Below are positions 2,822 through 31,223 of a stretch of DNA of 64,000 nt, piece after piece. Where the stretch lies: NCBI GenBank assembly GCA_016218715.1, contig JACRDG010000083.1, forward strand, positions 1 to 64,000, read 5' to 3'. How positions within the stretch are numbered: the stretch's first letter is position 1; every line of letters begins with the position of its first letter. The notes under the pieces are model-generated. The model was not told where the DNA came from, did no database searches, and saw only the letters and a program-made list of their open reading frames with translations. The position numbers and the translations under genes are program-made. Origin of the DNA: Desulfomonile tiedjei (lineage in GTDB: Bacteria > Desulfobacterota > Desulfomonilia > Desulfomonilales > Desulfomonilaceae).

Positions 2822-3561
2822 GACGCCTCCCCACCAGACACGCGCGGACGACCGTGAATCAGTATAGTGGACAGATACCCGACCTTCTCCTCGGTTGCGC
2901 CCTTGAGTGAGCGCAGGTCCAGCTCGATTCGCTGATTTTCCATCCCCGCGTGGGCCACGAACACGCCGCGGTCCATCATCCCTTCTTCTTCCAGCAGATC
3001 CAGGATCGCACCGAGCCGCTTCCCGATCTTCATCAGGACCAGCGTCCCTCCCATGGAGAGCGCACGCCTGATGTCTTCCAGATCGTCCGCGGTGGGGACG
3101 ATCACCACCGGTTCTTTTGCCTCTCCCACGGGGAATTCCGCCAGTGCCGCGGCTGCAGAAAACGCCGTAATCCCAGGCACCGTGACTGCTTCCACATTGG
3201 GCAAGCGCTCCCGAAGGGCTCGCAACATATAGATGTAGGTCGAATAGAGGAACGCATCGCCCAGCGTCAGGAAACACGCGTCTTCGCCGTTCTCCAGGAC
3301 TTCGGCCACGAGCCGGGCCGATTCCTCCCAGCGCTCTTGCAGCTCAACGCGGTCCGTGGTCATAGGGAACAGGATCTCGTGAATGGTAGCTTGTGGGCTG
3401 ATATGTTTTCCCGCGATGCTCAAGGCGACGCTTTCCGCTCCCTTGCGGGCTTTAGGTACAAAGACGTGCGGGCACGCGGACAGAATCGCTGCCCCTTTGA
3501 CCGTGATTAGATCCGGGTCGCCCGGTCCGACCCCGATGCCGTATAAGGTTCCCAGTTTCAT
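2818..3561 (-). CDS. cobI: Precorrin-2/cobalt-factor II C20-methyltransferase
   Basis: A 247-residue tetrapyrrole methylase; MKLGTLYGIGVGPGDPDLIT with VKGAAIL is the standard CobI/CbiL start. Further marks are FVPKARKGAESVA, LTLGDAFLYSTYIYML (the GDP-type loop) and VPGITAFSAAAA. The enzyme adds the C20 methyl group at the entry to the corrin branch. The long open frame upstream of this ATG belongs to the shadow of the cbiD-cbiE fusion. It overlaps both neighbours by 4 bp (ATGA). Confidence 0.95.
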   Translation of the reverse strand: MKLGTLYGIGVGPGDPDLITVKGAAILSACPHVFVPKARKGAESVALSIAGKHISPQATIHEILFPMTTDRVELQERWEESARLVAEVLENGEDACFLTLGDAFLYSTYIYMLRALRERLPNVEAVTVPGITAFSAAAALAEFPVGEAKEPVVIVPTADDLEDIRRALSMGGTLVLMKIGKRLGAILDLLEEEGMMDRGVFVAHAGMENQRIELDLRSLKGATEEKVGYLSTILIHGRPRVSGGEAS

Positions 3562-5249
3562 GGCAAGCTGCTTCTCTTTATGACCAGGATAACGCCGCGG
3601 GACGCAACCTCCAGCGTCGCCAGGTCGGCAAGATTCACTTCGCGGATGCGCTCGTCCTCCATGGTCAGGTTTTCGCACACGAAGATCAGCCGATCGCCCG
3701 AGTTGCTCCCGCCAAGCTGTTCGGTAATCCACCGAGGGAAGCCCCGGCGCCCGCCCAGCACAGCAATTTTGTCACTCTCCCACACTGACGCGTCACAGTG
3801 GGGGTTCTCCTTGTGGGCACTGATGATACAAGCGTCCGCCCAGTCAATCCCCACACGGGCAAAGGCCGCTTGCACAGAGCTGACCCCGGGGATGACGCTG
3901 CAGTTGTCGCGGCCGAAGCGCTCCAGCACCAGTTTGGCCAGGCTGAACAGCCCGGGATCTCCGGTTACCAATACGGCTATCTGCTGGTGGCCGCGTCGCT
4001 CTTCGATCCGATCGAGGATGTCCCTGGTTCCCGTGCCGACCTCGATGCGTTCCGCTGGGCTCGAAAGGAATAGATCCAGCAATCGCTTCGCGCCGACCAG
4101 CACATCCGCGCGGCTCACCGCCTTCATGGCTGCGGGCGTCAGGTATTCCGGGGCCCCCGGTCCGCACCCGACTATGCTGATGGAGGGTTCTTCATCTTCC
4201 CATGCCGACGTGTCACCATCCTGGCCGAGCAGAGCTCCGTTGATGTTTACGAGCACCACCGCGACAGCGAACTTGTTGTGTACCCGACAGAGAACAGCTT
4301 CGCGGATTCGAGCCGCAAGCTCGTTTCCAAGTTCTCTGCGCTCCTGCTCGGTCAGACCCGCAAACAATCCTTCCACCGTCCTGACGTCGGGAACGGGCCG
4401 GCCCCACTTCTCTTCAGCCATACGAACCACCTCGGGGACCGCACTCCTGGAGCGAGACGAATGCGTGTCCCATTCTCCCATCGCAAGTTTTGCCAGTTTG
4501 CCAGGATGCCCGAGCACGAGCAGTTTGCTGAACCCGCGCTCCGCGGCCGCATCAAGCATGAAACCCCACTCGTTGCTCACCTCGATCACCTGCTCGGGGG
4601 CAACCTGGAAATGCCTGCGAACAGCTCGTTCTCCGATGCGCCCGGGGACGAAGGCCGGCTCGCGAACGCCGCATGCCACTGCCACGCTCAAAGCGCATTT
4701 TAAGGCATCGCGCAGCGCCGAAGAACTGAACGGTCGGACGATGCCGGAAGTACCGAGAATGGAAAGGCCCCCCTGCACTCCAAGTCTGGGGTTGAACGTC
4801 TTTTCCGCGAGCGCTTCGCCGCCGGGAATCGAAATCGTGACCTCCACCGACCGATCGGTGACCTCCCGGACTGCGTCGCGAATCATGCGTCGCGGCACCG
4901 GATTGATGGCAGGCTGACCCGGAGGCACCTGCAGTCCCGGCTTGGTCACCGTTCCGACTCCCTCACCACCGCGTAGGGTGAATTCACCCGATGCGGACCA
5001 GGTAACCGTTGCCACGACCAGGCATCCGTCCGTCACGTCCGGGTCGTCACCCGCGTCTTTCTTCACCGCGGCACTGGGCAGGCCCGCGCGTTCCTCGAGG
5101 TCGGCAATGGGCAGCGTCACCCGCGTACCATCGGGGAGCGGGACGTCCACGTTCCCGAGGACCCGTTGGCCGCACAGGACCATCGCCGCAGCCTTGGCGG
5201 CTGCAGCAGCGCAGGTCCCTGTGGTGAATCCCGTCCGTCCAACCGTCAT
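3558..5249 (-). CDS. CbiD-CbiE fusion: cobalt-precorrin-5B C1-methyltransferase plus precorrin-6Y C5-methyltransferase subunit
   Basis: Two corrin enzymes in one 563-residue chain. Residues 1-350 are CbiD, beginning GRTGFTTGTCAAAAAKAA and carrying SILGTSGIVRPFS and LLVLGHPGKLAKLA. Residues 356-563 are CbiE, a tetrapyrrole methylase with SIVGCGPGAPEYLTP, VLVTGDPGLFSLA and VIPGVSSVQAAFARVG. CbiD methylates C1; CbiE methylates C5 and normally works with CbiT, which methylates C15 and decarboxylates. No CbiT follows here. The start chosen has AGGA eight bases upstream; an ATG at 5372 would add 41 residues without family resemblance and has a weak ribosome site. Confidence 0.9.
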   Translation of the reverse strand: MTVGRTGFTTGTCAAAAAKAAAMVLCGQRVLGNVDVPLPDGTRVTLPIADLEERAGLPSAAVKKDAGDDPDVTDGCLVVATVTWSASGEFTLRGGEGVGTVTKPGLQVPPGQPAINPVPRRMIRDAVREVTDRSVEVTISIPGGEALAEKTFNPRLGVQGGLSILGTSGIVRPFSSSALRDALKCALSVAVACGVREPAFVPGRIGERAVRRHFQVAPEQVIEVSNEWGFMLDAAAERGFSKLLVLGHPGKLAKLAMGEWDTHSSRSRSAVPEVVRMAEEKWGRPVPDVRTVEGLFAGLTEQERRELGNELAARIREAVLCRVHNKFAVAVVLVNINGALLGQDGDTSAWEDEEPSISIVGCGPGAPEYLTPAAMKAVSRADVLVGAKRLLDLFLSSPAERIEVGTGTRDILDRIEERRGHQQIAVLVTGDPGLFSLAKLVLERFGRDNCSVIPGVSSVQAAFARVGIDWADACIISAHKENPHCDASVWESDKIAVLGGRRGFPRWITEQLGGSNSGDRLIFVCENLTMEDERIREVNLADLATLEVASRGVILVIKRSSLP

Positions 5250-5397
5250 CGCGTCCTGAACCAAGGGCAGAGCCTGGGAGGAGTTCTCACCGCTTGATAT
5301 GGGAGTTCTTGGGAAAAGGGGTGCAGGGGAACCCTTTATCGCACAGAGGGCCTTCCCCACCACTGCACTCATTCAAGGCGTCCCGTATCATAGCGGT

Positions 5398-5919
5398 TCA
5401 GTGGTGATGGTCCTCGTCCGCGTTCTTGCGGTATTTCTCGGCTTCGTCCGGGAGCATGGGAACAAACTCGCACTGGCCGGGAGGAACCGGAAACTTCTTT
5501 CTCGGCGGCAAGACCAGCTCTCGCACGTCGCAGCAATCTGCGGACGCGGCGATCCTTCGCTCGACCAGATCCACCAGCGTTTCGTCGAAACCGAGATTCT
5601 GCCCGAGGACGACTCCCACCTCAGGGTACCTCCCGGCAAGTTCCTGGAGCATCTCGGGTATGTCCAACACGAGGTGCAGGCCATCATGCAGAAAGTACGG
5701 GATGACCATTACGTCGGTGGCGCCCATTTCCACACACTTGGCGAAGGTCTCGGGCAAATGCGGGCCGAGCCTCGACATGTAGCAGATCTCGACCAACTCG
5801 TACCCGTACATGTTTTTCAAGCCCGTGGCAACTTGCTCCATGTGCCGGCCCGCGTCCGGTACGCGGCTGCCATGGCCGAGAAGGATGATCGACTGTTTCT
5901 TACCGTTATCTCTCACCAT
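5398..5919 (-). CDS. cbiX: Sirohydrochlorin cobaltochelatase CbiX (short form)
   Basis: A small class II chelatase that inserts cobalt into sirohydrochlorin, the committing step of the anaerobic B12 route. The frame contains IILLGHGSRVPDAG, with the metal-binding His, YMSRLGPHLPETFAKCVEMGA and VIPYFLHDGLHLVLDIP, with the second His. It ends in a DEDHHH tail that could bind metal. A GTG at 5967 would add 16 residues, but the first of these lie inside the adjacent MITE-like repeat, and the ATG used here has GAGG just upstream. The gene is separated from cbiC by that repeat. Confidence 0.92.
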   Translation of the reverse strand: MVRDNGKKQSIILLGHGSRVPDAGRHMEQVATGLKNMYGYELVEICYMSRLGPHLPETFAKCVEMGATDVMVIPYFLHDGLHLVLDIPEMLQELAGRYPEVGVVLGQNLGFDETLVDLVERRIAASADCCDVRELVLPPRKKFPVPPGQCEFVPMLPDEAEKYRKNADEDHHH

Positions 5920-5961
5920 ATGCCTCGGAGTCTCCCACAATCGGCCGTCCGACCGAACATA

Positions 5962-6166
5962 TACCACTCGGGTTCACAATTACGGTCGCTTGTGCGAGGT
6001 CCCTGTCCTGAGCTGTTCCGTGGAGCAGAGGTTTCTCTCAACCACCGCGGCTTCTCCGGCTGTATTGGTGGGACAGGCATCTTGCCTGTCATTTTCCGAT
6101 GGACAGGCAAGATGCCTGTCCCACCATGATCCCGAAATGCGCGACCGAACTTGCGAAAACGTGTAC
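5962..6166 (-). mobile_element. MITE-like palindromic element, copy A, inside the cobalamin operon
   Basis: A non-coding 205-bp element between cbiC and cbiX. It contains a perfect 24-bp inverted repeat (6067-6090 and 6102-6125, 11-bp spacer) whose arms each hold the smaller palindrome GACAGGCAAGATGCCTGTC. The outer ends are imperfect inverted repeats, with TTACGGTCGC on the left and GCGACCGAACTTGCGAAAAC then GTAC on the right. A second copy lies at 32,762-32,942. The strong hairpin would form in the operon transcript. Confidence 0.8.
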
Positions 6167-6176
6167 TAAGGACCAC

Positions 6177-6869
6177 CTACGCGCTCACCGGATTACTCGC
6201 CAGCGAGCACAACGCATGGAGAACGCTCACCGCGAGCGTGCTCCCGCCCCGGCGGCCGGCCACTGCCACGTACGGCACGTCCAGCGTCATGAGTTCCTCT
6301 TTGCTCTCCACCACGTGGACAAATCCTACCGGCATGGCCACGACCAGCGACGGTCTGACCTGCTCTTCCATAATCAGGCGGTTCAGTTCCATCAGTGCGA
6401 CCGGAGCGTTGCCGAAGACGGCAATTCCGCGGTCGAGCATGGGTATGGCTTTGCGGACCGCGAAAAGCGACCGAGGCAGCCCTTTTTCCTTGGCTTCCTT
6501 TGCCACATCCCCGTCAGCCACGTGACAAACCACATCCTCCTCGCAGTACCCCGAACAGACGGAACGCAACCGCGGCAAGGACAATCCGGAACGGATCATG
6601 CTGGAGTCGACGTAAATGGGCCTGCCTGAACGCAAAGCTCCCGTGCCGGCCTCGAGTGCGTCCGGTGAGAATCTAATCGCATCAATCAACCCGAAGTCCG
6701 CGACAGTATGAATCATACGCCGCACCACCACCCACTGCTTCGGAGAAAATCCGTGGGCCGGGACTTCCTCATCGATCAGTTGGAAAGATCGCTCCTCGAT
6801 GGCCTGGCCGCTCATTGGACGATCGTACAGCGCGTGAATCAGCGCCTTTCCGGATATGGTACCTGTCAT
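6177..6869 (-). CDS. cbiC: Precorrin-8X methylmutase (CobH/CbiC)
   Basis: A 230-residue methylmutase that moves the methyl group from C11 to C12, giving hydrogenobyrinate or cobyrinate. Visible motifs are EERSFQLID near the N-terminus, YVDSSMIRSGLS, AVFGNAPVALMELNRLI and MPVGFVHVVESKEEL, followed by GRRGGSTLAVSVLHAL at the C-terminus. An internal ATG at residue 19 is an alternative start. The next upstream gene is cbiA, 24 bp away. The MITE-like element begins only 10 bp past the stop. Confidence 0.93.
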   Translation of the reverse strand: MTGTISGKALIHALYDRPMSGQAIEERSFQLIDEEVPAHGFSPKQWVVVRRMIHTVADFGLIDAIRFSPDALEAGTGALRSGRPIYVDSSMIRSGLSLPRLRSVCSGYCEEDVVCHVADGDVAKEAKEKGLPRSLFAVRKAIPMLDRGIAVFGNAPVALMELNRLIMEEQVRPSLVVAMPVGFVHVVESKEELMTLDVPYVAVAGRRGGSTLAVSVLHALCSLASNPVSA

Positions 6870-6893
6870 GTTTGTCTGCTCAAGGCTTCTGGG

Positions 6894-8285
6894 CTACCGT
6901 TGTCCGCGACATACGGCCACAAGGTGTTCCACTGCTTCCGGCCGAGAGGCAAAATGGAGATGAAAATAGCTTGCCAAAACATTGCCTCTCTGGAACCCCT
7001 CGGCAACCGCGGCATCGGAACGGCGATGCACGGCCCGGTATGACGCGGTCCATTCCCCCTCGACCGTGGGGTCGCCGGTCAGCTCCGAGTAATGGAATTC
7101 ATGGCCTCTCAATTGCGACCCTTTGATTCCGAAAAGCGAATCCCGTGCGAGGGTCACCTCAACATATCCCAGCGACTTGAGCCTGTCCAGCATTCGTGTT
7201 GCCGCGGGGAGCAAGCCGACGAGCTTGTGGCGCTTTCGGTCAAGGGTTTCAATGCCTTCGCTCAGGTACATGAGCCCGCCGCACTCCGCGTAAACCGGCT
7301 TCCCGCTTTCGGCAAACCGTCTCACGGAATCGAGCATGGTTGCATTGCCTGCGAGTGGCTCCGCAAACTCCTCCGGATAGCCGCCGCCCAGGTAGATCGC
7401 GTCGAGCTCAGTGGGAAGGGCCTCGTCGCTTAAGGGTGAGAAATGGACCAACTCGCACCCGTATGCTTCCAGCGCCTCGAGGTTGTCCGGGTAGTAGAAA
7501 TGAAACGCACGGTCGTATGCCAGCCCGATCTTGACGGATCTTTCCGAGACCCGAGGCTTCCACAGCGGCCCGGCTTCTTTCAGTTCACCGGCGCTTCCGG
7601 CCTTTTCGATAATTCTGTCTACAGATGCATGGCGTTCCAGCGCATCACCGAGACCGTTCAGAATGGTGGCGTCGAGCAGGGTCCCATCGGCCGTCACCAG
7701 GCCGAGGTGTCGGCTTGGCAGACGCGGCAACGCACCTCGCGGCACTGCGCCGACCAACTCCGGCAGTCGGGATGACGCGAGCGCCTCCGCCAGACCCGTG
7801 CCGTGACGCTCCGATCCGCAATGATTCGCAATCACTCCGCCCAATTTCAGTTCGGGCTCGAACTCTGCGTACCCTTTCACCAGGGCCGCAATACTGCGTG
7901 CCAGGCCATGGACGTTGACCACGAGGAGCACCTCCGCGTCCAGCCACAAGGCCGCCTCGGCGGTACTCCCCGCGAGGGTGTCGGAGTCCGCGCCGTCGAA
8001 CAGCCCCATCACCCCCTCGATCACCGCTATGTCCGCATCTGCAGAGGCATGAATGAACAGCCGCCGAATGTACTCCCGTCCCGTCATCCAACCGTCGACG
8101 TTGTAGCACGGTCTCCCGGAAGCCAGCGCCAGGTAGGTCGGGTCCAGATAGTCCGGTCCAACCTTGAAGGCCTGAACCCGCAAACCCCGCTGCCTCAGCG
8201 CGGCCACGAGCCCCAGGGTCACCGACGTCTTGCCGACCCCGCTATGAGCACCCGCAACCACGATTCTCGGGCACGAAGAGATCAC
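6894..8285 (-). CDS. cbiA: Cobyrinate a,c-diamide synthase (CbiA/CobB)
   Basis: An ATP- and glutamine-dependent amidase that converts the a and c carboxylates of cobyrinate to amides. The 463-residue chain has a P-loop at 11-20 (AGAHSGVGKT), GPDYLDPTYLALASGRPCYNVD split over the switch region, GVMGLFDG, and a C-terminal class I glutamine amidotransferase part with LGGGYPEEFA, YAECGGLMYL (catalytic Cys) and SYFHLHFAS. The chosen GTG has AGGAG seven bases upstream; the longer ATG frame to 8414 runs through the terminator-like hairpin and is unlikely. Confidence 0.94.
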   Translation of the reverse strand: MISSCPRIVVAGAHSGVGKTSVTLGLVAALRQRGLRVQAFKVGPDYLDPTYLALASGRPCYNVDGWMTGREYIRRLFIHASADADIAVIEGVMGLFDGADSDTLAGSTAEAALWLDAEVLLVVNVHGLARSIAALVKGYAEFEPELKLGGVIANHCGSERHGTGLAEALASSRLPELVGAVPRGALPRLPSRHLGLVTADGTLLDATILNGLGDALERHASVDRIIEKAGSAGELKEAGPLWKPRVSERSVKIGLAYDRAFHFYYPDNLEALEAYGCELVHFSPLSDEALPTELDAIYLGGGYPEEFAEPLAGNATMLDSVRRFAESGKPVYAECGGLMYLSEGIETLDRKRHKLVGLLPAATRMLDRLKSLGYVEVTLARDSLFGIKGSQLRGHEFHYSELTGDPTVEGEWTASYRAVHRRSDAAVAEGFQRGNVLASYFHLHFASRPEAVEHLVAVCRGQR

Positions 8286-8307
8286 TACCCTGCTCCTGAC
8301 CACAACT

Positions 8308-8399
8308 GATCCCGAACCGCTTTCGAAGGAGTAATCCGGGGGGAACTTCTTTACACAAAAAAGTTCCCCCCGAACGCTCTTTAAAAGCGGTTCGGGATT
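8308..8399 (-). terminator. Nested hairpins after the PhzF-like gene
   Basis: An outer 15-bp inverted repeat (GATCCCGAACCGCTTT at 8308-8323 and its complement at 8384-8399) encloses an inner perfect 12-bp stem (8337-8348 with 8361-8372, sequence CGGGGGGAACTT). No long U tract follows on the minus strand, so it may attenuate or process the transcript rather than act as a classic terminator. Confidence 0.55.
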
Positions 8400-9285
8400 A
8401 CACGAATTCGCCACGGGCGATGGTGATGGCCTTGCCGCCGACCGACACGTCGATTACGCCGTCGTGTTCTTCCGCTTTCAATAACAGGAGCGACGGCCGA
8501 CCGATTTCGTACCCTTGCTCGCTCCGAATATCGACTTTTCTTTTCCCCCAGTACCGATGCCGGACCAGGTACCCGGCCAGGCAACCGTTGCCGCTTCCGG
8601 TCGCAGGGTCTTCGGAGATGCCGTACCAGTCGGCAAACTGGCGGACACTCACGTCATTCGCCCAGTTGTGCGGCTCGGGAGAGAAGATCAGGATCGCCTT
8701 TGCCCACGCCTTCTTGGCCAGCTCGAAGTACTTGTCCTTGACTATGCAGGCCTGTTTAAGGGATTCCAACGTCTTTAGGGGGACAATGATGTGCGGCAGT
8801 CCCGTTGAAACCTCCTCAACGGGAAAACGATCGTCGATCTCGCTTTCGTCCAGGCTTAGCATCGGCGCGATAACGCCTGCCTTGAAGGTGCTCCCGAACG
8901 TCGGTTCGACCTGACGCATCCAGCAAGTCTGTTCGTCGTCCGCGTTCGATCCGAACGTCACCGGGATTCGCCCCACCTTCAGGTTCAGGGTTATCTCGTG
9001 AGCGGTTTCCCCGACGATTTCATCGCGGATAACATGAGCCGTGCCCAGCGTCGGGTGGCCGGCAAAAGGGACTTCTTCATTCGGGGTAAAAATCCTCACG
9101 TCGAATCCGCTGTCTCCCGGCGTCTCTGACAGAATGAACGCAGTCTCCGAGTAGTTCATCTCCTTGGCGATGCGTTGCATTTCCGCGTCCGATAGATCTT
9201 GAGCCCCGCGAACGACCGCGAGCTGGTTGCCCGTATATTTTTCTTCCGCAAACACGTCTACCAGATACAAGCGGAGTCTTCCCAT
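8398..9285 (-). CDS. PhzF-family isomerase
   Basis: A 295-residue protein of the diaminopimelate-epimerase-like PhzF fold. Visible features are FAEEKYTGNQLAVV, NYSETAFIL with the catalytic Glu of the family, FTPNEEVPFAGHPTLGTAHV, and in the second half DPATGSGNGCLAGYL. PhzF members isomerise small molecules, but the substrate is not predictable. GAGGAGG lies eight bases before the ATG. It sits between cbiA and cbiB in the same direction, yet no PhzF step is known in corrin synthesis, so it may be a passenger or serve side-chain chemistry. Confidence 0.88.
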   Translation of the reverse strand: MGRLRLYLVDVFAEEKYTGNQLAVVRGAQDLSDAEMQRIAKEMNYSETAFILSETPGDSGFDVRIFTPNEEVPFAGHPTLGTAHVIRDEIVGETAHEITLNLKVGRIPVTFGSNADDEQTCWMRQVEPTFGSTFKAGVIAPMLSLDESEIDDRFPVEEVSTGLPHIIVPLKTLESLKQACIVKDKYFELAKKAWAKAILIFSPEPHNWANDVSVRQFADWYGISEDPATGSGNGCLAGYLVRHRYWGKRKVDIRSEQGYEIGRPSLLLLKAEEHDGVIDVSVGGKAITIARGEFV

Positions 9286-9346
9286 CTCTTCATCCTCCTC
9301 ATGGCATGAACTCAGCCGTTCACTGCTGCCGGGAATAATGAAAGAC

Positions 9347-10315
9347 CTACCGGTACAGGTCAGCAGCATGGAACAGAAGGATCCGCAACCCGATCAGGGC
9401 TGCGAGGACCAACAAGCCCGTTGTTACCATCAAGGCATTGGTGGCTCGAATTTGCGCAGCGGTCAGAGGCTCTATCGGATCGCCCAGATACTCCTTATGC
9501 GAAGGTACTCCCTCATAGAAACTCGTGCCGCCCAATTGCACGCCCAAGGCCCCGGCTACCGCGGCCTCCGACTGCCCTGCATTGGGACTCGGATGTTTGT
9601 TCCGGTCCCGCAGGAAGATCCTGACCGATGACATAGGCCGCAATCCGAGGATCAGGGCCGCGACCGGGACGAATATTGCCGTCAAGCGGCTTGGCACAAA
9701 GGCCGCCAAATCGTCCAGTCGCGCGGAAGCCCAACCGAATTCCCTGTACCGCTCGTTCTTGTACCCGAACGTGGAATCGAGCGTACTGACAGCTTTGTAC
9801 GCCATGATCCCGACCGGACCGCCCACAGCGGCCCAAAACAGGGGTGCGGTCACCCCGTCCACCATGTTCTCGGCAACGCTCTCCACGGTGGCTCGGGCGG
9901 TTCCCGATTCGTCAAGCCGATCGGTGTCTCGCCCGCAGATCATGCCGACCCTGACTCTTGCCTCTACCAGATCCTCGGCCTCCAAGGCCCGCCACACCTC
10001 CGTGCTGTGCCTCAGGAGATCCCGTGCGGCCAGCCCCGTATACATGACCAGTATTGACATTGCATCGCCGAACCAGGGATGCAAATGTCCCGAAACCCTG
10101 ACCAGGGCGTAGGTGACGCAGGCTGCAGCGCCGACAACGACCGCTGCAGCGCAGATTCCGGCCGATCGCGCGGAGTGGAACCCTCGGCGCAGCGGCTGTT
10201 CCAGGAACAAAGCGAATCGGCCAATCAACCGGACCGGGTGGGGAAACCATCGGGGATCGCCGAGAAGCAGGTCCAGAGTCACAGCCAGGAGGATCTGGTA
10301 CTCGAGCTGCATCAC
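9347..10315 (-). CDS. cbiB: Adenosylcobinamide-phosphate synthase (CbiB/CobD)
   Basis: An integral membrane protein of 322 residues that attaches the aminopropanol or its phosphate to adenosylcobyrate. It shows [18 protein letters not shown] at the N-terminus, then [47 protein letters not shown] and [19 protein letters not shown], all hallmarks of the family. Four or five hydrophobic stretches agree with membrane location. The start overlaps the stop of the upstream fusion gene by 4 bp. Confidence 0.94.
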
Positions 10316-12882
10316 AGCCCCAGCAGCGCATAGATCCGGTCCATGGGCAGGCTCCGCCGGACGACCTCTGCAAGTCGATCGAAGGCAGGCTCCAGATCGT
10401 ACCGACCACAGATCTTTCCCAGCGGAGCGAGTCCCCGCCGCACTCGAAGGCGGTCGATAAAAGAGCGCCGGAACTCGTCCGCATCAAAAATGCCGTGGAG
10501 GTACGTGCCCCATATGCGACCGTCTACGGACCTGGCTCCGTCCATCTCGCCCCGATCCGTCTCCACTACCGGCTTCACTCCGTTCGCCGCAGTACGGCCG
10601 TGGTGAATTTCGTACCCATACACGAACAGCCCCGACTCGAGGTGAGTGCCGGAGACGCGGGTGAGTGTCTTCTCCGGTGCCAGCACGGTCGTCAACTCGA
10701 GAAAACCCAGGCCTGCCAGAGTTCCCTGGTCCGACTCCAGGCCGTGAGGGTCTTCGATCCCGCTCCCGATCATCTGCAGGCCGCCGCAAATCCCGACCAC
10801 TTCGCTCGTCCCGTCGCGCACCAGTTCGTTGATCCGCTCGGCGATCCCACGATTCCTGAGATCCTGTAGGTCACCGATGACATTCTTGCTTCCGGGCAGG
10901 ATGATCGCATCAGGCTCCGTCAGATCGGTCGCGGCCCGGATCACCTTCAGCCGCACATCCGGCTCGACACGGAACGCGTCGAAATCCGTGAAGTTCGAAA
11001 TGTGCGGCACGTCGATGACCGCGATCTCGACGCACTCGGGGAGGCGTTCCGGCTCGACGGCAAGGCGGCTCTTGAAAGTGACCGAATCCTCCTCCGGGAG
11101 CCCCAGGTCCTGGATGTACGGGACGACCCCCAGGACCGGTCGGCCCGTGTGCCGGAGCGTATATTCCATGGCCGAGTCAAGCAGATCTTCTTGCCCGCGG
11201 AAGCGATTCACCACAAATCCGGCCACCAGATCCCGTTCCCATTCGGCAAGGACTTCCATGGTCCCGATGAACGAGGCAAACACCCCACCCCGGTCGATGT
11301 CTCCGACGAGCAGCACCGGCGATCGGGCGTACCGCGCCATCTGCATGTTCACGATGTCGTGGTGCTTGAGGTTCACCTCCGCAGGGCTCCCCGCTCCCTC
11401 CAGGACCATGACGTCGAACGCTTCGGCCAGCGAGTCGTAGGCTGCTTTCGCCGCTTCGAACGCGGTAGGCTTGTACCGGACGTACTCCGTGACGTTCATG
11501 TTTCCCACGGGCTTGCCGAGGAGTATCACCTGGCTCCCTGTATCGGAATTGGGCTTCAACAGGATCGGATTCATCCGGACGTCCGGTTCCAGACGGCAGG
11601 CATGGGCCTGGACCACCTGCGCCCGTCCCATCTCACCACCATCTCTCGTCACGAAGGAGTTCAGGGACATGTTCTGGCATTTGAACGGAGCGACCCGGTG
11701 ACCGTCCTGGAGAAGAATGCGCGCCAGGGCAGCGGTGAGGATGCTCTTCCCTGCATTGGAGCTGGTCCCCTGGACCATAATGGCTGGGGTACGGGATTTC
11801 TTGTGATGACTCGGGGCAATTCCCACAGAACCTTTCAGCGATTCCAACAACGTGAGGTTATCCTCTCGACTGCGCACCGCCACCCTGAAGAAGCGCCGGT
11901 CGAGCCCCTCAAAATTGTCACATACGCGAAGCGCCACACCGCGGGCAAGGGTCCGCCGGGCAAGCTCAGGAGCATCAATGTCCGACCGGTCAATCCGCGC
12001 GAGGAGGAAATTGGCCTTTCCCGGGTACACGTGAAAGCCGGGAATGGCCTGCAATTGGCCGTGCAGGAACTCTCGCTCGTCGCCGACGAGCCGGAGGCTC
12101 CGTTCGACATAATCCGTATCCTCACATGCGGCGATCCCAACCGCCTGAGCGAATCGGTTTACCGACCACGGTGGCTGCACCTGCTCGGCCCTGGCAACCA
12201 ATTCCCGGTCAGCCACCGCGAAACCGAGCCGAAGTCCAGGAATGGCATAGGTTTTGGTCAGGGAAATCACTACGACAACGTTTGGTGGTCGATCGACGAG
12301 GAAGCTTTCAACCCCGTCCGAGAGCTCGAGGAACGCCTCATCCACAACGAAGAGCGTGGACGAGTTCCGCTCTGCGAGATCCAGCAGGGCCTTCCGGTCG
12401 AGCGGCAGACCGGTAGGGTTGTTGGGATGGCCCACATAAACAAGCTGATCGTCTTCCAGGAGCGATCCGAGAGTTTCATAATCGATGCGGAACTCGTCCT
12501 CCTCCTTCAGAAGCAGCGTGTCGACAGCCACTCCGGCAAGTTGAGCGGCATTGGCATAATCCAGGTAGGACGGGACCGGAACGATGGCCCATTGCTTTTC
12601 CACCGCCCTCGGAATCAGGTAGATGAGTTCCGTAGAGCCGTTCCCCACGAGGATTTCATCGGTTTCCACGCGGTATCTTCGCGCCAGGGCTCTTTTCAGG
12701 TCGGAAGACTCGGGGTCGGGGTAGTGAACCGCGCCGGTCAGCGCGGAACTCACCACGCCCCTCAGCCATTCCGGCGGGCCCAGAGGATTGATGTTGGCGG
12801 AGAAGTCGATGATTTGGTCGTCACGCAGCCCTGCTTCGCGTGCAAAATTCCGTATATGGCCGCCATGCTTGAATTTGGACAT
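10312..12882 (-). CDS. Fusion of threonine-phosphate decarboxylase (CobD/CobC) and cobyric acid synthase (CbiP/CobQ)
   Basis: One 856-residue chain. Residues 1-360 are a fold-type I PLP enzyme: [37 protein letters not shown], and [14 protein letters not shown] with the PLP Lys at about 210. This half makes aminopropanol phosphate. Residues 364-856 are cobyric acid synthase: P-loop [10 protein letters not shown] at 371-380, [24 protein letters not shown], and the glutaminase Cys in [13 protein letters not shown]. This half amidates the b, d, e and g carboxylates. AAGGTG precedes the ATG. Both products meet at CbiB, encoded next. It is the first gene of the operon in this window. Confidence 0.93.
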
Positions 12883-13124
12883 AGAGCACCTTTGCCGGTG
12901 ATCATGCACCATCGCAATTCAGATGGGTCACGTCTACTCCGGTGAACGGTCACCTTTTCGAACACCCCCTGTGCACAAGGGTGCGAGAGCCGCGGAACGG
13001 ATTCGTGCACGGGGACCCTTCAGGTGGACCATAAAACCGCTCGAAGGTCAAGCGCCGACGGACTCGCGGCGTAGCGATGGGGAGGAGGAGGGCTGAATCG
13101 ACCACGATAGAAAGGAGGGCGGGC
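12883..13124. other. Intergenic region upstream of the cobalamin operon
   Basis: This 240-bp stretch precedes the first cobalamin gene. It was checked for cobalamin-riboswitch boxes (the conserved AGCCACTG and GGGAA blocks) and none are seen. A small CGCCG/CGGCG hairpin lies at 13,052-13,071. No convincing promoter was recognised. Confidence 0.5.
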
Positions 13125-25001: not shown

Positions 25002-25019
25002 GACACATCCTTTCTGCAA

Positions 25020-25513: not shown

Positions 25514-25810
25514 CTAACCCAACGTCGGTGAGTCCCAAAGCTCTTTCAGATTCCTGTCCTCATCGTCCGCGTTGTCTTTGCGATCGTCGTCACTTTCTTC
25601 GACTTCGGAATCCTCGTCACTAGCAGCAACAACCGGTCTGGTGTCGTTACTCTGGGACAAAGAGAGCGGAGCGCCTTGGCCTGCGAATCGCAAAGGGGAG
25701 CTTTGGACATCCGCACGATAATCGCTCTCCTCGGACAACCAGAGCATTCCTCCCAGTGAAAAGACAGCCAGCATCAAAGAGGCCAAAAGAGCAATCCTAC
25801 AGGTTCTCAT
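25514..25810 (-). CDS. Small exported acidic protein, cassette copy 2
   Basis: A 98-residue protein with an N-terminal hydrophobic stretch (IALLASLMLAVFSLGGMLWL) that acts as signal or anchor. A strongly acidic tail follows (DEDSEVEESDDDRKDNADDEDRN) and ends WDSPTLG. AAGGAG precedes the ATG. It follows the second outer-membrane-barrel gene by 37 bp, exactly as the other small acidic protein (27,944) follows barrel copy 1, and both end in a similar Pro-x-Leu-Gly. No family was recognised; the Asp/Glu run could bind cations. Confidence 0.75.
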   Translation of the reverse strand: MRTCRIALLASLMLAVFSLGGMLWLSEESDYRADVQSSPLRFAGQGAPLSLSQSNDTRPVVAASDEDSEVEESDDDRKDNADDEDRNLKELWDSPTLG

Positions 25811-25847
25811 GGTCAATTCTCCTTTCCTCTTATGTTTGCTCGAAATT

Positions 25848-27566
25848 CTAGAAACGGAAGGCCATCGAAACCTCGCCTCCTATAACGGGATCGATCGTCT
25901 TTCCTGGCCGTGTGCCGAAAAGATTGGCAGGTGTCTGTATGTTCCAGGAAGGGACCGACCTGTCGATGCATGCGTACGTAAACCATTTGCCTGGTTGCCA
26001 GTAGCAGAACGTCCCGGTCAGCGACCAACCCTCCAAGAGCTGCCATTCAAAGCCCGTGTCAAACTCGTAACCAAGAGAACGATCGGGGATGTTCGGTGAG
26101 CCTGCGACGCCGTCTAAATTCCGAGGGCCGATATTACCATTAACCGGAAAGCCATTGAAGGCAACGTCATTCGGACCGATGAAACCCCACGGATACCCGT
26201 GGGAAGTCCTCTCAGCCCAGAAGCCGGTGAAGAACAGATTCAAGTTGGCCGCAGCGGCAAAATCCAGTCTTGCCCCCAGTGTGGACGCGTCCCGGACGTA
26301 CCCATCGACCGTAAGGTTGTAGGCTGCGAGGCCTGAACCGAAGACGTAAGAAAACATATAGGAATAAGGTCGGAATACGCTGAAATTTGACAGAAACCGA
26401 TCGTACGTTGGATGCCATGGAAACGCGGCAGGCTGTTTGCCGATCAGAGCTCCGTTTCTCCTGTCCGGACCGGGCTGCCAGGCATAAAGCACGCTCATCT
26501 TCGCTGGACCGGCGAAGACCCCGAACTCGGTCATAAAGCGCCACTGCTCGACATCCTGTGCGTCGGTGCCGAACAACAACACCCTTGCACCCCGGAACCG
26601 ATCGGCATAGTAGAGCCACGCAGCTTCGGCATTGAAGAAGAAACGACCGTTGTTGTATTTCACAAAGGACGATCCGTGAAAAATAGCCGTGCTTTGCGCA
26701 CTGAAATCAGTAGGCCGCAAAAGGGCTTCCGGACCGATGTGGAAATCGCCGTAAACCCCTAACGCGCCAACCTGGAACTCTCCTGACGAATAAGTGACAA
26801 ACCCGAGGAAGTCACGGGAGAAGGCACCGGCAAAGTCTGAACGATTGAAATGCTGGAAGCCGCCTAGATCATATGGGTCTTGATAGCCTGGCGGAATCGG
26901 TGTTCCAATCACGCCAGGAGTAGGTGGTTGCGGTGGAGTAGATGGTTGCGGGGAAGACCCTGCGAATCGCCAGGGGTAAAAGCCGAACCCAACCTTCAGG
27001 GGACCGTACGGCGCAATAAAGGTAATTGATTCCGTACTGGCAGTGTCCGAACCGTCGTATTGCAGCCCAGTACCGAAAATCCACCGCCTTTTTCCTATGC
27101 CAAGAACCCCCCACGGCGTCTGGGCAGTTACCCAGAACAGGGTCCACTTGCCCTCGCTGATGGCAGTCTCAGCACCAAGTGCTCCCTGAGTCCAATAATC
27201 GTTGTCGCCGGTAGGATCGCCGTACATACCGATCCGGTATTGCGCCTGCACCCTTATGGCTTCATTGATCTTGAGAGTGGGCCAGAACTTCACCCACAAT
27301 GCGGACCATCCTGCATCAGCACTGGAGGCGAGGTCTTTATCAAGGATTCCCTCCCCCTCCCAGAAGTTAAGATTAGCTGTAGTCGTGCCCACTCCCCTAT
27401 CTACGTCGTACGGCCCGAAGAAGCCGTTGTGTCCGACCTGGCTGAAGCGCACGGAATACCAGTTGACCCATCCCTCCATCTCGAGTTCCCACGCAGAAGC
27501 AGCGGATGAAAAGGACAGGGACACGACGAAGACGAAAACAAGACACCGTTGCACCCACTTCGACAT
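25848..27566 (-). CDS. Outer-membrane beta-barrel protein, copy 2
   Basis: A 572-residue secreted protein: the signal peptide ends FSSAASA before WELEMEG, and the chain ends in Phe (GGEVSMAFRF), as expected for an outer-membrane barrel. Amphipathic strands rich in Trp and Tyr run throughout. It is clearly paralogous to the 28,492 gene: both share GFFGPYD, ANLNFW, SADAGWS, FWVTAQ-PWGV-GIGKR, LQYDG and AWQPGPDRRNGALIGKQPAA-type segments. GGAGGG lies nine bases before the ATG. No named porin family was recognised. The substrate is unknown; see the riboswitch upstream of copy 1. Confidence 0.82.
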   Translation of the reverse strand: MSKWVQRCLVFVFVVSLSFSSAASAWELEMEGWVNWYSVRFSQVGHNGFFGPYDVDRGVGTTTANLNFWEGEGILDKDLASSADAGWSALWVKFWPTLKINEAIRVQAQYRIGMYGDPTGDNDYWTQGALGAETAISEGKWTLFWVTAQTPWGVLGIGKRRWIFGTGLQYDGSDTASTESITFIAPYGPLKVGFGFYPWRFAGSSPQPSTPPQPPTPGVIGTPIPPGYQDPYDLGGFQHFNRSDFAGAFSRDFLGFVTYSSGEFQVGALGVYGDFHIGPEALLRPTDFSAQSTAIFHGSSFVKYNNGRFFFNAEAAWLYYADRFRGARVLLFGTDAQDVEQWRFMTEFGVFAGPAKMSVLYAWQPGPDRRNGALIGKQPAAFPWHPTYDRFLSNFSVFRPYSYMFSYVFGSGLAAYNLTVDGYVRDASTLGARLDFAAAANLNLFFTGFWAERTSHGYPWGFIGPNDVAFNGFPVNGNIGPRNLDGVAGSPNIPDRSLGYEFDTGFEWQLLEGWSLTGTFCYWQPGKWFTYACIDRSVPSWNIQTPANLFGTRPGKTIDPVIGGEVSMAFRF

Positions 27567-27943
27567 TGCAAACGACCCTCCTGAGATCATCCCGAGAATT
27601 CCCGCACCACAATAAAGAAATCCTCAACGAAACCCTGTTCGGCCGTTTCCTTGACGCTTGCGACAGCAATCACTAACTGACTCGCCTTATACTAAGAATG
27701 TTAGACGAACCTACCTGATGTCGCGCAGCCCGTCAAGAAGAAAGTGCAACCGGCCCACGAGGCTGGTTACGAAAGGCGTTGTCGTCCAGACGGATTCACG
27801 TAGATTCTCTGAATGCATAAAGAACCCTCCCCCATGAAGGAGAAGGGCATAGGGATCTTGCGTATGACCCGCCGGCGCCGGTTCTCAAGGGCTCGGGAAC
27901 ACGCAGCGGTAGTCTCGCAAGTGCACTTGTTCAGCCGTTGCGG
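27567..27943. other. Intergenic region between the two barrel cassettes
   Basis: Roughly 375 bp. No riboswitch comparable to that upstream of copy 1 is present. A possible weak promoter (TAGTATAAG on the minus strand near 27,690) is the only signal noticed, so copy 2 may be read from upstream or from its own start. Confidence 0.4.
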
Positions 27944-28294
27944 CTACCCGAGCTTCGGCGCATTCCCGAGCCGGTCCGGGCCTTCAAAGCCGTCGTCCTT
28001 TTCCGCGGCGGCCTCCTCATCGGCGCTTTCTTCGTCTTCCTCGGGGTCACCGGTTGCCGCGAGTATTATCGCCCGTATCTCTCCAGGTGCGGGTAAGGCG
28101 GTGGCGCTTCTCCGTACGGCCGACAGCTCCCGGAACAGGGTGTGGTCTGGCAGGACACTCGACGGACTCTCCACGCCAATGTCATTTGACGGTTTCGTTG
28201 TGTCAGTGTCAATTGACGCGCCACATGCCAGAAAAGCGACCACCATGGCTGCCAACGCGAAAGCAGCCTTCAGAAACATGAACGACCTGTTCAT
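27944..28294 (-). CDS. Small acidic putative lipoprotein, cassette copy 1
   Basis: A 116-residue protein whose N-terminus AAFALAAMVVAFLACGAS looks like a lipoprotein signal with Cys at residue 24; Phe at the -3 position is atypical. The tail is acidic (DPEEDEESADEEAAAEKDDG) and ends GNAPKLG. It follows barrel copy 1 and mirrors the small acidic protein after copy 2, suggesting duplication of a two-gene unit. No homology to a named family is seen. A GTG nine bases upstream is an alternative start. Confidence 0.72.
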   Translation of the reverse strand: MNRSFMFLKAAFALAAMVVAFLACGASIDTDTTKPSNDIGVESPSSVLPDHTLFRELSAVRRSATALPAPGEIRAIILAATGDPEEDEESADEEAAAEKDDGFEGPDRLGNAPKLG

Positions 28295-28410
28295 TTCGAG
28301 CACCCCTCTACATGGACTGAGTCATAGGCGACCCACCGCTCAGTACTCTGATGCGTGAATATGGTCCCCTATTCGCTTGTCTCCGGTTTCGCTCGGGGCT
28401 TTCCCTCGCC

Positions 28411-28437
28411 GGCGGCCGGCAAGATGCCGGCCCCACT
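28411..28437. repeat. Short copy of the CGGCAAGATGCCG palindrome
   Basis: The intergenic sequence GGCCGGCAAGATGCCGGCC followed by CCACTG resembles the core of the repeats at 1.8 kb, 6.1 kb, 32.9 kb and 39.0 kb. It sits between barrel copy 1 and the small lipoprotein gene and would form a compact hairpin in the operon transcript. Confidence 0.6.
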
Positions 28438-28491
28438 GAACAACCCAAGACAAGGACCCCTCGCAAGAACCTAATCTGCGAAACCGAGCGG

Positions 28492-30213
28492 TTAGAACAA
28501 AAAGGACGAGTAGAATTGTCCGCCCAGCACCGGATCGATAGTCCGGTCGGGTCTCGTGCCGAAGAAATTTGCGGCAGTTCCGAATTCCCATCCGGTGACG
28601 GACCGGTCGATACACGCGAAACTGAACCATTTGCCCGGCTGCCAGTACCCGACGAATACCCCTGCGGTCCATCCCTCGAGGAGCTTCCAGTCCAGGCCCG
28701 CGTCGATTTCGTAGCCGAGCGCGGTTTCCGGAATATTGGGCGCGGCTGGATAGCGATTGATGTTGACGTTCACGTTGCCGTCCGGGATGTTGATAAAGCC
28801 ACTCCCCGGCACCCCAGCGTTGGGGCCGAGACACGCCCAGCTATACCCGTTTGACGTCCGGCTGGCGTAGAAGAAGGCTCCGAAGATGTTCAGGTTTGCC
28901 GCCACGGCATAGTCCAGGCGAGCGGCCAGGACGAACGCGTCCCGCACGTACCCGTCCCCATTGAGGTTGAATGCGTTGAGCCCTGCTCCATAATCGTAGC
29001 TAAAAATGCAGCTGTAAGGCCTGAACACGTTGTAGTTTCCCAACTGGCGGTCGTAATTCGTATGCCAGACGAATGCCGCCGGCTGCTTTCCGACCAGCGT
29101 GCCGGCTCGCCTATCCGGACCGGGAGTCCAGGCGGTTAGCAGGCTAAGCTTGGCTGGGCCGGCCAGTACCCCAAATTCAGCCATGTAGCGCCATTGCTCG
29201 ATGTAACGCGGGTTCGGCGGACCGACCACCGCGTTCGCGTTCGAGTATCGGTCCGTCCAGTACAGCCAGGCTGCCTCCGCGTTGAAGAAGAAACGCCCGT
29301 TATTGTACCGCACAAAGGCGGTCCCGTGAAAGAGGTCTGAATCCTGGGGAACCAGTGTGAATGTCGGCGGATCCAAAGGATCGATCAACAGAGCCTCGGA
29401 GCCGATATGATAGCTTCCGTACGACCCGAGCACTCCCGCCTCGAGCGGCCCGTTGTGGTAGACCGCGAAACCGAGAAAATCCTTGGAGAACGTGCCGCTC
29501 TTGTCCGCGCGGCTGAAGTACTGCCCCTGCGTCGGGAACCCGGCAGCAGTAAAGTAGAATGGCAGGTTGTAGGGATCGTCCAGTATATACGCCGGAATCC
29601 GGGAGCTTCCGGCAAACCGGTACGGGTAGAAGGCGATGCCGATGTCCCACGGCCCGTACGGAGCAACGATGGACAGTGATTCCGTGGTGGCAGCATCCTC
29701 GCCGTCGTACTGCAAGGCATTTCCAAACACCCAGGGCCTTTTTCCGATTCCGAAGACCCCCCACGGGAGTTGGGCCGTGACCCAGAACATCGTCCACTGC
29801 CCGTCGCTGAAGGCTCGGTTGATCCCCGGTGCTTCCTGGGTGTGATAATCCGAGGCGGTCGGGTCTCCGTAGGACCCGAGGTGATATTTCCCCGAGAACC
29901 TTATCGCTTCATTGACCTTTATCTTCGGCAGGAAGTCTACGGTAAAAAACGACCAGCCAGCGTCGGCAGAGGTCGTTATCTGGGTATCGAATCTCCCGCC
30001 ATTCCAAAAGTTCAGGTTGGCGGCTCTCGTAAAAGTTCCTGCGTCTCTGTCGTACGGGCCGAAGAAGCCTCTTGCTCCCAATTGGTCGTACCATTCGTAC
30101 GTCCAGGCGAACGCGGTCCCCAGCTCGAATTCCCACGCCGACGCGGGGGGCGCAAGAAAGGGCAGAAACAATGCCAAGACCGCGGCTGACACGAGGAGAA
30201 CGATTCCTCGCAT
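28492..30213 (-). CDS. Outer-membrane beta-barrel protein, copy 1, riboswitch controlled
   Basis: A 573-residue exported protein. The signal peptide MRGIVLLVSAAVLALFLPFL ends APPASA before WEFELG, and the C-terminus is FYSSFLF with the terminal Phe of outer-membrane barrels. It shares long motifs with copy 2 (GFFGPYD, SADAGWS, PWGVFGIGKRPWVFG, FVRYNNGRFFFNAEAAWLYW). GGAGG lies seven bases before this ATG; the longer frame would start inside the leader. A cobalamin riboswitch and intrinsic terminator lie 150-400 bp upstream on the same strand, so expression is probably off when B12 is plentiful. Cargo could be cobalt, corrinoid or a precursor; this is inferred from regulation only. Confidence 0.85.
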   Translation of the reverse strand: MRGIVLLVSAAVLALFLPFLAPPASAWEFELGTAFAWTYEWYDQLGARGFFGPYDRDAGTFTRAANLNFWNGGRFDTQITTSADAGWSFFTVDFLPKIKVNEAIRFSGKYHLGSYGDPTASDYHTQEAPGINRAFSDGQWTMFWVTAQLPWGVFGIGKRPWVFGNALQYDGEDAATTESLSIVAPYGPWDIGIAFYPYRFAGSSRIPAYILDDPYNLPFYFTAAGFPTQGQYFSRADKSGTFSKDFLGFAVYHNGPLEAGVLGSYGSYHIGSEALLIDPLDPPTFTLVPQDSDLFHGTAFVRYNNGRFFFNAEAAWLYWTDRYSNANAVVGPPNPRYIEQWRYMAEFGVLAGPAKLSLLTAWTPGPDRRAGTLVGKQPAAFVWHTNYDRQLGNYNVFRPYSCIFSYDYGAGLNAFNLNGDGYVRDAFVLAARLDYAVAANLNIFGAFFYASRTSNGYSWACLGPNAGVPGSGFINIPDGNVNVNINRYPAAPNIPETALGYEIDAGLDWKLLEGWTAGVFVGYWQPGKWFSFACIDRSVTGWEFGTAANFFGTRPDRTIDPVLGGQFYSSFLF

Positions 30214-30357
30214 GATCCTTCCTCCCATTTCACACCAGACACGTCTGTCAAAGCCCGATGGGACACCGTAGCACCTTTCCTGGAAGCGTGTCAATTCAGA
30301 ACCTCCAACCCTGGCAGTCTGCTGGTGCACCTGTTTGCGGAACTCATTCCGCACTGC

Positions 30358-30388
30358 AAAAAAAATCCCCGAGTACTAAACTCGGGGA
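30358..30388 (-). terminator. Intrinsic terminator of the cobalamin riboswitch
   Basis: On the minus strand a perfect 9-bp stem TCCCCGAGT/ACTCGGGGA with a five-base loop is followed directly by eight U residues. It lies between the cobalamin aptamer and the barrel gene, so it is the likely transcriptional decision point. Confidence 0.9.
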
Positions 30389-30451
30389 TACCGTATTCTA
30401 TCCCTTGTTGCCGCGCTCCTGGTCCGCGAGGAGCCGACATCTTTGTCATGT

Positions 30452-30612
30452 TGTGGGCAGGTCTTCTGGCTTCCGGCTCCTCCTACTCACCGCCCTTCCC
30501 ATCACAGAGTGACAGTGGCTTCGCGGCTTTCGTCCCCGGTCACAGCGGCGGGTCCGCAACGGATTCGCACCGTTTTCCCTCAAGTCCCCAGATGGGGATT
30601 ACCCTCAACGAG
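30452..30612 (-). ncRNA. Cobalamin (B12) riboswitch
   Basis: Read on the minus strand, the conserved blocks occur in order: GGTGCGAATCCG, CGGACCCGCC, GCTGTGACCGGG, GAAGCCACTGTC (the B12 box), GATGGGAAGG, and CCGGAAGCCAGAAGACCTGCC just short of the family end. This is the full adenosylcobalamin-class aptamer. An 8-nt segment GAGGAGCC in its 3' part can pair with GGCTCCTC at 30,428-30,435, which may form the switching helix before the terminator. Confidence 0.95.
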
Positions 30613-30621
30613 TTTGCAAAC

Positions 30622-30650
30622 AACGTAACGGTTGCTCTTGGCGGAGTCAA
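30622..30650 (-). promoter_or_regulatory. Sigma70-type promoter of the B12 riboswitch transcript
   Basis: TTGACT (30,645-30,650) and TACGTT (30,622-30,627) are separated by 17 bp on the minus strand, placing the transcript start at the 5' edge of the aptamer. Confidence 0.65.
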
Positions 30651-30862: not shown

Positions 30863-30913
30863 ATTAGCTAACCATACTACATCATTGACAATATTCTAAG
30901 GGCGCCTTAGGCT
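30863..30913. promoter_or_regulatory. Overlapping divergent promoters
   Basis: On the minus strand TTGTCA (30,886-30,891) and GCTAAT (30,863-30,868) have a 17-bp spacer. On the plus strand TTGACA (30,885-30,890) and TAGGCT (30,908-30,913) also have 17 bp. The two -35 boxes overlap almost entirely. The plus one serves the His-rich gene; the minus one would transcribe the 200 bp before the riboswitch. Confidence 0.5.
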
Positions 30914-30965
30914 CTTTGTGAAGGGAAAGTGATTGAACGGTCACCCCGACTGAAAGGAGCCAATC

Positions 30966-31223
30966 ATGCACGGCGACCACGAGCACGAGCATCTGCACGT
31001 CCACGATCACAGCCACACGCACGCTCACGAACACGTTCACGGCGACATGAAACACTCTCACGAGCACGCCCACGCTCACGGCCACGAGCATCTCCACGAA
31101 CACAAACATGGGCACGACCATCGAGACCCGCTGGTTCACGACCACGATCACGCCGGGGATCATGGTGCACACAATCACGCGCATCCAGCCCACGAGCAGG
31201 AGGCCCACGAGCACAGCCACTGA
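30966..31223 (+). CDS. Histidine-rich metal-binding protein
   Basis: 85 residues of which close to 40% are His, in HDH, HEH and HAH units without Cys and without a signal peptide. GAAAGGAG before the ATG supports translation. Such peptides bind nickel, cobalt, zinc or copper in the cytoplasm, as with Hpn-type nickel stores or the His-rich tails of metallochaperones. It diverges from a B12-riboswitch-controlled barrel operon, so cobalt is a natural candidate ligand. It is followed by a terminator-like hairpin. Confidence 0.85.
   Translation: MHGDHEHEHLHVHDHSHTHAHEHVHGDMKHSHEHAHAHGHEHLHEHKHGHDHRDPLVHDHDHAGDHGAHNHAHPAHEQEAHEHSH

What the first reader, a model, noticed from the sequence alone, without database searches (positions are those of the whole stretch)
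25514..30650. B12 riboswitch driving a duplicated outer-membrane-barrel / acidic-small-protein cassette
A complete cobalamin aptamer with promoter, possible 8-bp switch helix and intrinsic terminator precedes a barrel gene, an acidic putative lipoprotein, a paralogous barrel and a second acidic exported protein. B12 riboswitches mostly control B12 synthesis, BtuB-type uptake or cobalt transport. These barrels do not look like TonB-dependent receptors: no plug domain is recognisable. The unit [barrel + small acidic protein] is duplicated in tandem. It may be a new cobalt or corrinoid outer-membrane passage system, with the Asp/Glu-rich tails binding cations.
Basis: partly seen in the sequence, partly recalled or inferred. 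Interest (0 to 1): 0.87.

Follow-up and report, generated by a model that had tools for sequence, protein, structure and literature searches.

The report
B12-switched outer-membrane cobalt channel cassette
A vitamin-B12-sensing RNA switch sits in front of two copies of a new outer-membrane pore plus a small metal-binding-looking protein, and relatives of this pair lie beside cobalt, nickel and zinc transporters, so it is probably the missing outer-membrane door for cobalt in bacteria that build their own B12.

Summary
A full-length cobalamin riboswitch (RF00174, 113.9 bits) with a downstream intrinsic terminator precedes barrel A, an acidic exported protein, paralogous barrel B (55% identical) and a second acidic protein, all on the minus strand. 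The barrels match no Pfam or NCBIfam family and have no plug. Barrel A is predicted as an ~18-strand porin (AlgE/MOMP/OprD fold). The genome holds no TonB-receptor plug domain at all, yet it encodes de novo B12 synthesis (inside this window) and a riboswitch-controlled CbiMNQO cobalt importer. The family was found only in the Desulfomonile-type family. One clade (support 1.0, 24 loci) contains both window barrels. Ten of its 24 barrels lie within 5 kb of CbiM or a B12 riboswitch, against 0 of 82 other paralogs. In G003 the operon is riboswitch - CbiK cobaltochelatase - barrel - acidic protein. The partner protein, with C-terminal signature DRxW....LG, follows 16 of 19 testable clade barrels and none outside. 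Beside znuABC its acidic stretch becomes His-rich and a Zur-like box precedes the barrel. Best reading: a metal-import porin/metal-binder module whose window copy serves Co2+ uptake under B12 repression. Transport and metal identity are untested. Corrinoid passage is the main rival.

The parts
30893..30922 (-). sigma-70-like promoter TTCACA-18-TAGAAT upstream of the aptamer
   Evidence: consensus scan; not evidence of function alone
30439..30621 (-). Cobalamin riboswitch aptamer RF00174, full length, 113.9 bits
30365..30389 (-). intrinsic terminator (10-bp stem ATCCCCGAGT/ACTCGGGGAT, then TTTTTTT), 50 nt 3' of the aptamer: candidate OFF expression platform
28492..30213 (-). barrel A (573 aa, P0002), signal peptide, C-terminal Phe, predicted ~18-strand porin
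27944..28294 (-). acidic partner A, exported, D/E-rich, C-terminal signature DRLGNAPKLG
27824..27848 (-). terminator-like hairpin between pair 1 and pair 2
   Evidence: near chance frequency
25848..27566 (-). barrel B (572 aa, P0001), 55% identical paralog of barrel A
25514..25810 (-). acidic partner B, exported, D/E-rich, C-terminal signature ELWDSPTLG
30966..31223 (+). His-rich 85-aa ORF divergent from the cassette; a similar His-rich ORF ends the CbiMQO operon of L114
   Evidence: role inferred
1047..12912 (-). de novo anaerobic B12 synthesis cluster (CbiG, TP methylases, CbiD, CbiC, CbiA, CbiB, aminotransferase/CobQ fusion): context showing need for cobalt, not part of the cassette

Best explanation
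The cassette is an outer-membrane cobalt(II) uptake module. When adenosylcobalamin is scarce the riboswitch lets transcription pass the terminator and the cell makes an 18-strand, strongly acidic (cation-attracting) porin and a small exported D/E-rich partner. Co2+ diffuses through the porin, the partner binds or concentrates it in the periplasm, and CbiMNQO, under a second copy of the same riboswitch, imports it for the de novo B12 pathway encoded in the same window. The clade has paralogs wired to Ni (NikKLMQO), Zn (znuABC, Zur-like box, His-rich partner) and probably Fe systems. Shown: the aptamer, gene order, fold class, clade-specific genomic associations, partner conservation and charge bias. 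Inferred: the direction of the switch, diffusion of Co2+, and the partner's role.
For: Riboswitch and terminator. The same regulator in this genome controls true CbiM (TIGR00123 above cut-off). De novo B12 genes in the window. No TonB-receptor plug in the genome. Across 18 genomes, 8 of 25 CbiM genes lie within 5 kb of clade barrels against 0.1 expected, and 7 of 63 B12 riboswitches against 0.22 expected; both are 0 for 82 outer paralogs. G003 has the operon riboswitch-CbiK-barrel-acidic partner. A tree clade of support 1.0 carries these contexts. The partner occurs in 16/19 clade loci and 0/69 others, and is His-rich next to znuABC. The Zur-like palindrome occurs only twice in 18 genomes, both upstream of clade barrels. 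Clade barrels have mean net charge -11.9 against -4.75 outside, P 5e-9. Fold hits are 18-strand porins.
Against: No transport, binding or expression data exist. The model confidence is moderate (pLDDT 64.8). Several clade barrels sit beside Ni, Zn, Fe or even ammonium genes, so substrate cannot be read from the family. L031 and L032 have no metal gene nearby. Counts include orthologs within one genus, so P values overstate independence, and the wider metal-marker comparison used queries taken mostly from clade loci. In L110 the riboswitch is ~700 nt from the barrel. Three clade loci lack the partner.
Confidence: 0.62

Rival explanations
1. The barrels pass corrinoids (B12 or precursors), replacing the absent BtuB.
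For: B12 riboswitch control; no plug-domain receptor in G000, G003, G006 or G007; G003 and G006 keep riboswitch-controlled CbiK-BtuCDF; a paralog in this genome sits beside the only strong FecCD-ATPase-Peripla_BP_2 importer.
Against: This genome makes B12 itself and its riboswitches control CbiMNQO, not BtuCDF. The FecCD-linked paralog lies outside the clade. Clade contexts include Zn, Ni and Fe transporters, and partners are acidic or His-rich.
Confidence: 0.15
2. The cassette imports nickel, or Co and Ni without discrimination, and the riboswitch is only one of several inputs.
For: Several clade barrels are divergent from CbiM/NikM-NikL-CbiQ operons with NikK/DUF4198.
Against: No delta-proteobacterial NikR-like site was enriched upstream. 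In G000 the NikKMQO locus (L202) has no barrel, while B12 control points to cobalt.
Confidence: 0.12
3. They are general porins of a lineage-specific family, placed near metal genes without metal specificity.
For: A large paralog family (about 15-17 per genome) with AlgE/MOMP/OprD-like fold; some members have no metal neighbour; L122 sits between amtB genes.
Against: Metal association, partner protein and acidity are confined to one clade.
Confidence: 0.09

Closest known systems
Cobalamin riboswitch-controlled cobalt uptake genes (CbiMNQO etc.)
   Same: Same regulator class and same proposed logic: low B12 turns on cobalt import; a review notes many cobalt transporters were identified this way (PMC7689651).
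   Different: Those are inner-membrane importers, or predicted TonB receptors; here the controlled gene is a non-TonB barrel with an acidic partner.
MnoP of Bradyrhizobium and RopAe of Rhizobium etli (metal-linked porins)
   Same: Outer-membrane porins reported for Mn (MnoP, cited in PMC6011978) and Cu (RopAe, PMC6011978); ropAe is raised under copper limitation.
   Different: RopAe is a 16-strand porin of the Porin_2 family. The window barrels match no Pfam family, are predicted with ~18 strands, and come with a dedicated acidic or His-rich partner and RNA control.
BtuB and other TonB-dependent receptors (FrpB4, NikH)
   Same: Outer-membrane step for B12, nickel or cobalt; BtuB is the classic B12-riboswitch target.
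   Different: No plug domain; ~18 rather than 22 strands; this genome has no plug-domain protein at all.
AlgE / OprD-Occ / Campylobacter MOMP porins
   Same: Fold: VIA-align Z 21-23 over 310-370 residues.
   Different: About 10% identity; no Pfam hit to any porin family.

Membership tests
Cobalamin riboswitch (RF00174) | covariance-model score above the gathering cut-off, full length | tested here: met
   113.9 bits vs 31.5, positions 1-189
Cobalamin riboswitch (RF00174) | expression platform next to the aptamer | tested here: met
   intrinsic terminator 30389-30365, 50 nt downstream
Cobalamin riboswitch (RF00174) | cobalamin binding and gene control | not testable with these tools
   needs in-line probing or a reporter
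TonB-dependent transporter (BtuB type) | plug domain PF07715 | tested here: not met
   no Pfam hit in the barrels; none in the whole genome
TonB-dependent transporter (BtuB type) | 22-strand barrel | tested here: not met
   about 18 strands in a moderate-confidence model; fold hits are 18-strand porins
OprD/AlgE/MOMP porin families | sequence membership in their Pfam families | tested here: not met
   no Pfam family at E<=1 for barrels A and B; 21 relatives give only chance hits
OprD/AlgE/MOMP porin families | 18-strand porin fold | tested here: met
   Z 21-23, model pLDDT 64.8, pTM 0.66
Metal-specific outer-membrane porins (MnoP kind, functional) | regulation by, or linkage to, the metal's own homeostasis system | tested here: met
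   B12 riboswitch, CbiM, CbiK, znuABC and Zur-like box associations
Metal-specific outer-membrane porins (MnoP kind, functional) | demonstrated metal permeation | not testable with these tools
   needs bilayer or uptake assay

The most novel reading that the evidence does not exclude
A lineage-specific outer-membrane metal-import system in which an acidic 18-strand porin and a secreted metal-binding partner (D/E-rich for Co/Ni, His-rich for Zn, shared DRxW....LG tail that may dock on the barrel) form a module. Paralogs are wired to each metal's own regulator (B12 riboswitch for Co, Zur-like repressor for Zn), replacing TonB-dependent metal and B12 uptake in organisms that lack TonB receptors.
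Probability: 0.45. Interest if true: 0.85.

Novelty: new variant of a known kind. Interest (0 to 1): 0.72.

Why it matters
How cobalt crosses the outer membrane is open: a 2021 review states that no cobalt-specific outer-membrane receptor has been confirmed (PMC7689651). Here is a specific candidate with its regulator, a dedicated partner protein and metal-matched paralogs, in organisms lacking plug-domain receptors. It makes the question directly testable, and would show a B12 riboswitch controlling a non-TonB outer-membrane channel.

Tried and rejected
Known family for the barrels: none in Pfam, NCBIfam or PDB sequence search; the NCBIfam BamI hit to acidic B (E 0.012, 15.5 bits vs cut-off 180) is noise. 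The PHROGs search failed on a coordinate error and was not repeated, as it was not relevant. NikR box (GTGTTAC-N-GTAACAC) upstream of clade barrels: no enrichment over outer barrels. A single simple switch helix: not resolvable from one MFE. TonB absence: four TonB_C-like domains do exist in the genome, so only receptor (plug) absence is claimed. Genes around barrels L031 and L032 gave no metal gene. The viral fold library was not searched (not relevant). A second fold was not run, because loci from the genome search are not listed as allowed input.

Full report
What is there. The cassette is on the minus strand. A promoter-like site (30922-30893) precedes a full-length cobalamin aptamer (30621-30439; RF00174, 113.9 bits, E 8.5e-28). 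An intrinsic terminator follows 50 nt further on (30389-30365), then barrel A (30213-28492), acidic protein A (28294-27944), barrel B (27566-25848) and acidic protein B (25810-25514). The barrels are paralogs with 55% identity. Both start with a signal peptide and end in Phe. A terminator next to an aptamer normally means that the ligand switches the gene off; this is inference. A weaker hairpin between the two pairs (27848-27824) leaves it open whether pair 2 is on the same message.

The barrels. Neither matches Pfam or NCBIfam. Scanning 21 relatives gives only chance hits, and a profile finds nothing meaningful in the PDB. AlphaFold2 with 18 sequences gives a moderate model (pLDDT 64.8, pTM 0.66) with about 18 strands running from residue 27 to the C-terminus and no N-terminal plug. 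The best structural matches are AlgE, Campylobacter MOMP and OprD/Occ porins (Z 21-23 over 310-370 residues, ~10% identity). These are 18-strand channels.

The host. The assembly is 99.99% complete, 5.55 Mb. It has no plug domain PF07715, although four TonB_C-like domains occur. It has three B12 riboswitches: this one, one before CbiMNQO, and one before a radical SAM/SPASM protein. CbiM of the second locus passes the NCBIfam cobalt CbiM cut-off. The window itself carries CbiG, CbiD, CbiC, CbiA, CbiB, tetrapyrrole methylases and an aminotransferase-CobQ fusion at 1047-12912. So the cell makes B12 and needs cobalt, and the other importer in its B12 regulon is a cobalt-ion importer, not BtuCDF. 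Named relatives are Desulfomonile and related MAGs; G005 (6.5 Mb, 2 contigs) has the size expected of D. tiedjei (from memory, not tested).

Distribution. With P0002, hits occur in 17 of 18 genomes of the same family and none of 42 outside it. With the family profile, only genomes of the same family respond among 395 of the phylum. Genomes carry up to ~17 paralogs.

Genomic wiring. A FastTree phylogeny of 90 barrels puts both window barrels in a clade with support 1.0 (21 full-length members, 24 with fragments). Genome-wide lists of CbiM and B12 riboswitches were compared with barrel positions. Eight of 25 CbiM genes lie within 5 kb of clade barrels (0.11 expected), and 7 of 63 riboswitches (0.22 expected). 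Three riboswitches are within 1.5 kb upstream on the same strand (0.014 expected). All counts are zero for the 82 paralogs outside the clade. Ten of 24 clade barrels against 0 of 82 others have CbiM or a riboswitch within 5 kb (Fisher P 6e-8). Orthologous loci within a genus inflate these numbers; CbiM neighbours occur in five genera and riboswitch neighbours in six. The clearest locus is G003:C20 (L109): CbiM, CbiQ and CbiO genes, a 126-bit riboswitch, CbiK cobaltochelatase (PF06180, 241 bits), barrel 90 nt later, acidic partner 52 nt later. In L113, L114, L115 and L108 the barrel is divergent from CbiM/NikM-NikL-CbiQ operons or a CbiM gene next to a B12 riboswitch. Other clade members adjoin ZnuA/ZnuB, FeoB, NikK, MntP or CzcA; 14 of 21 against 5 of 69 outside. 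That marker test is biased, because most queries came from clade loci.

The partner. A small exported protein ending in DRxW....LG (or a close variant) directly follows 16 of 19 testable clade barrels and no other barrel. Its C-terminal 60 residues hold 12-23 Asp/Glu. At the G005 locus beside znuABC (L117) the stretch instead holds 17 His, and the same tail is kept. A perfect 17-bp palindrome GTAATAC-N3-GTATTAC lies at -61 of that barrel. In all 18 genomes this palindrome occurs only twice, the other time upstream of the clade barrel beside CzcA in G003. Its layout equals the Desulfovibrio Zur box ATGCAAC-N3-GTTGCAT (PMC545781). Naming it a Zur box is an inference. Clade barrels are also much more acidic than their paralogs (mean net charge -11.9 against -4.75, P 5e-9), as expected for cation channels; phylogenetic relatedness is not corrected for.

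Interpretation. The best-supported account is a porin plus metal-binding partner for divalent metal import, with this copy assigned to cobalt by its B12 riboswitch, its genome's B12 synthesis and CbiMNQO. Corrinoid passage is the chief rival: some plug-free relatives (G003, G006) keep riboswitch-controlled BtuCDF, and another, outer-clade paralog in this genome flanks a FecCD-type importer (L034). Nickel or mixed Co/Ni is possible, since NikKL-type genes recur.

Known context. [quoted passage not shown] Metal-linked porins are known for Mn (MnoP) and Cu (RopAe) (PMC6011978). No paper found in the held library describes B12-riboswitch-controlled non-TonB barrels or these Desulfomonile barrels. 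The kind (metal porin; B12-controlled cobalt uptake) is thus known, while the family, the partner and the RNA wiring are new as far as these sources show.

Noticed in passing
window 49543-49481 (-): Fluoride riboswitch (RF01734, 53.6 bits).
   Followed up: no
L038:5992-7407 (-) and L200:4034-5449 (-): A B12 riboswitch precedes the same radical SAM/SPASM protein in two genera (G000 and G003): a B12-controlled enzyme of unknown role, possibly a B12-independent substitute.
   Followed up: partly
L034:3527-8725 (-), also L177 and L152: Barrels outside the clade lie next to FecCD/Peripla_BP_2 importer genes; they may be outer-membrane partners for chelated substrates, perhaps corrinoids.
   Followed up: partly
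L122:4219-9975: A clade barrel with its acidic partner sits between amtB-glnK and a second amtB: an ammonium or nitrogen-linked member.
   Followed up: no
L117:7743 and L123:7608: Zur-like palindrome GTAATACNNNGTATTAC, only two copies in 18 genomes, both upstream of clade barrels; a 1-mismatch site precedes znuA in L119 (3471).
   Followed up: yes
window 30966-31223 (+): Very His-rich 85-aa ORF divergent from the cassette, resembling the His-rich ORF closing the CbiMQO operon in L114 (3443-3697).
   Followed up: partly
window 24114-25019 (-): Protein with weak LamG-like and nucleoside deoxyribosyltransferase-like halves downstream of the cassette.
   Followed up: no
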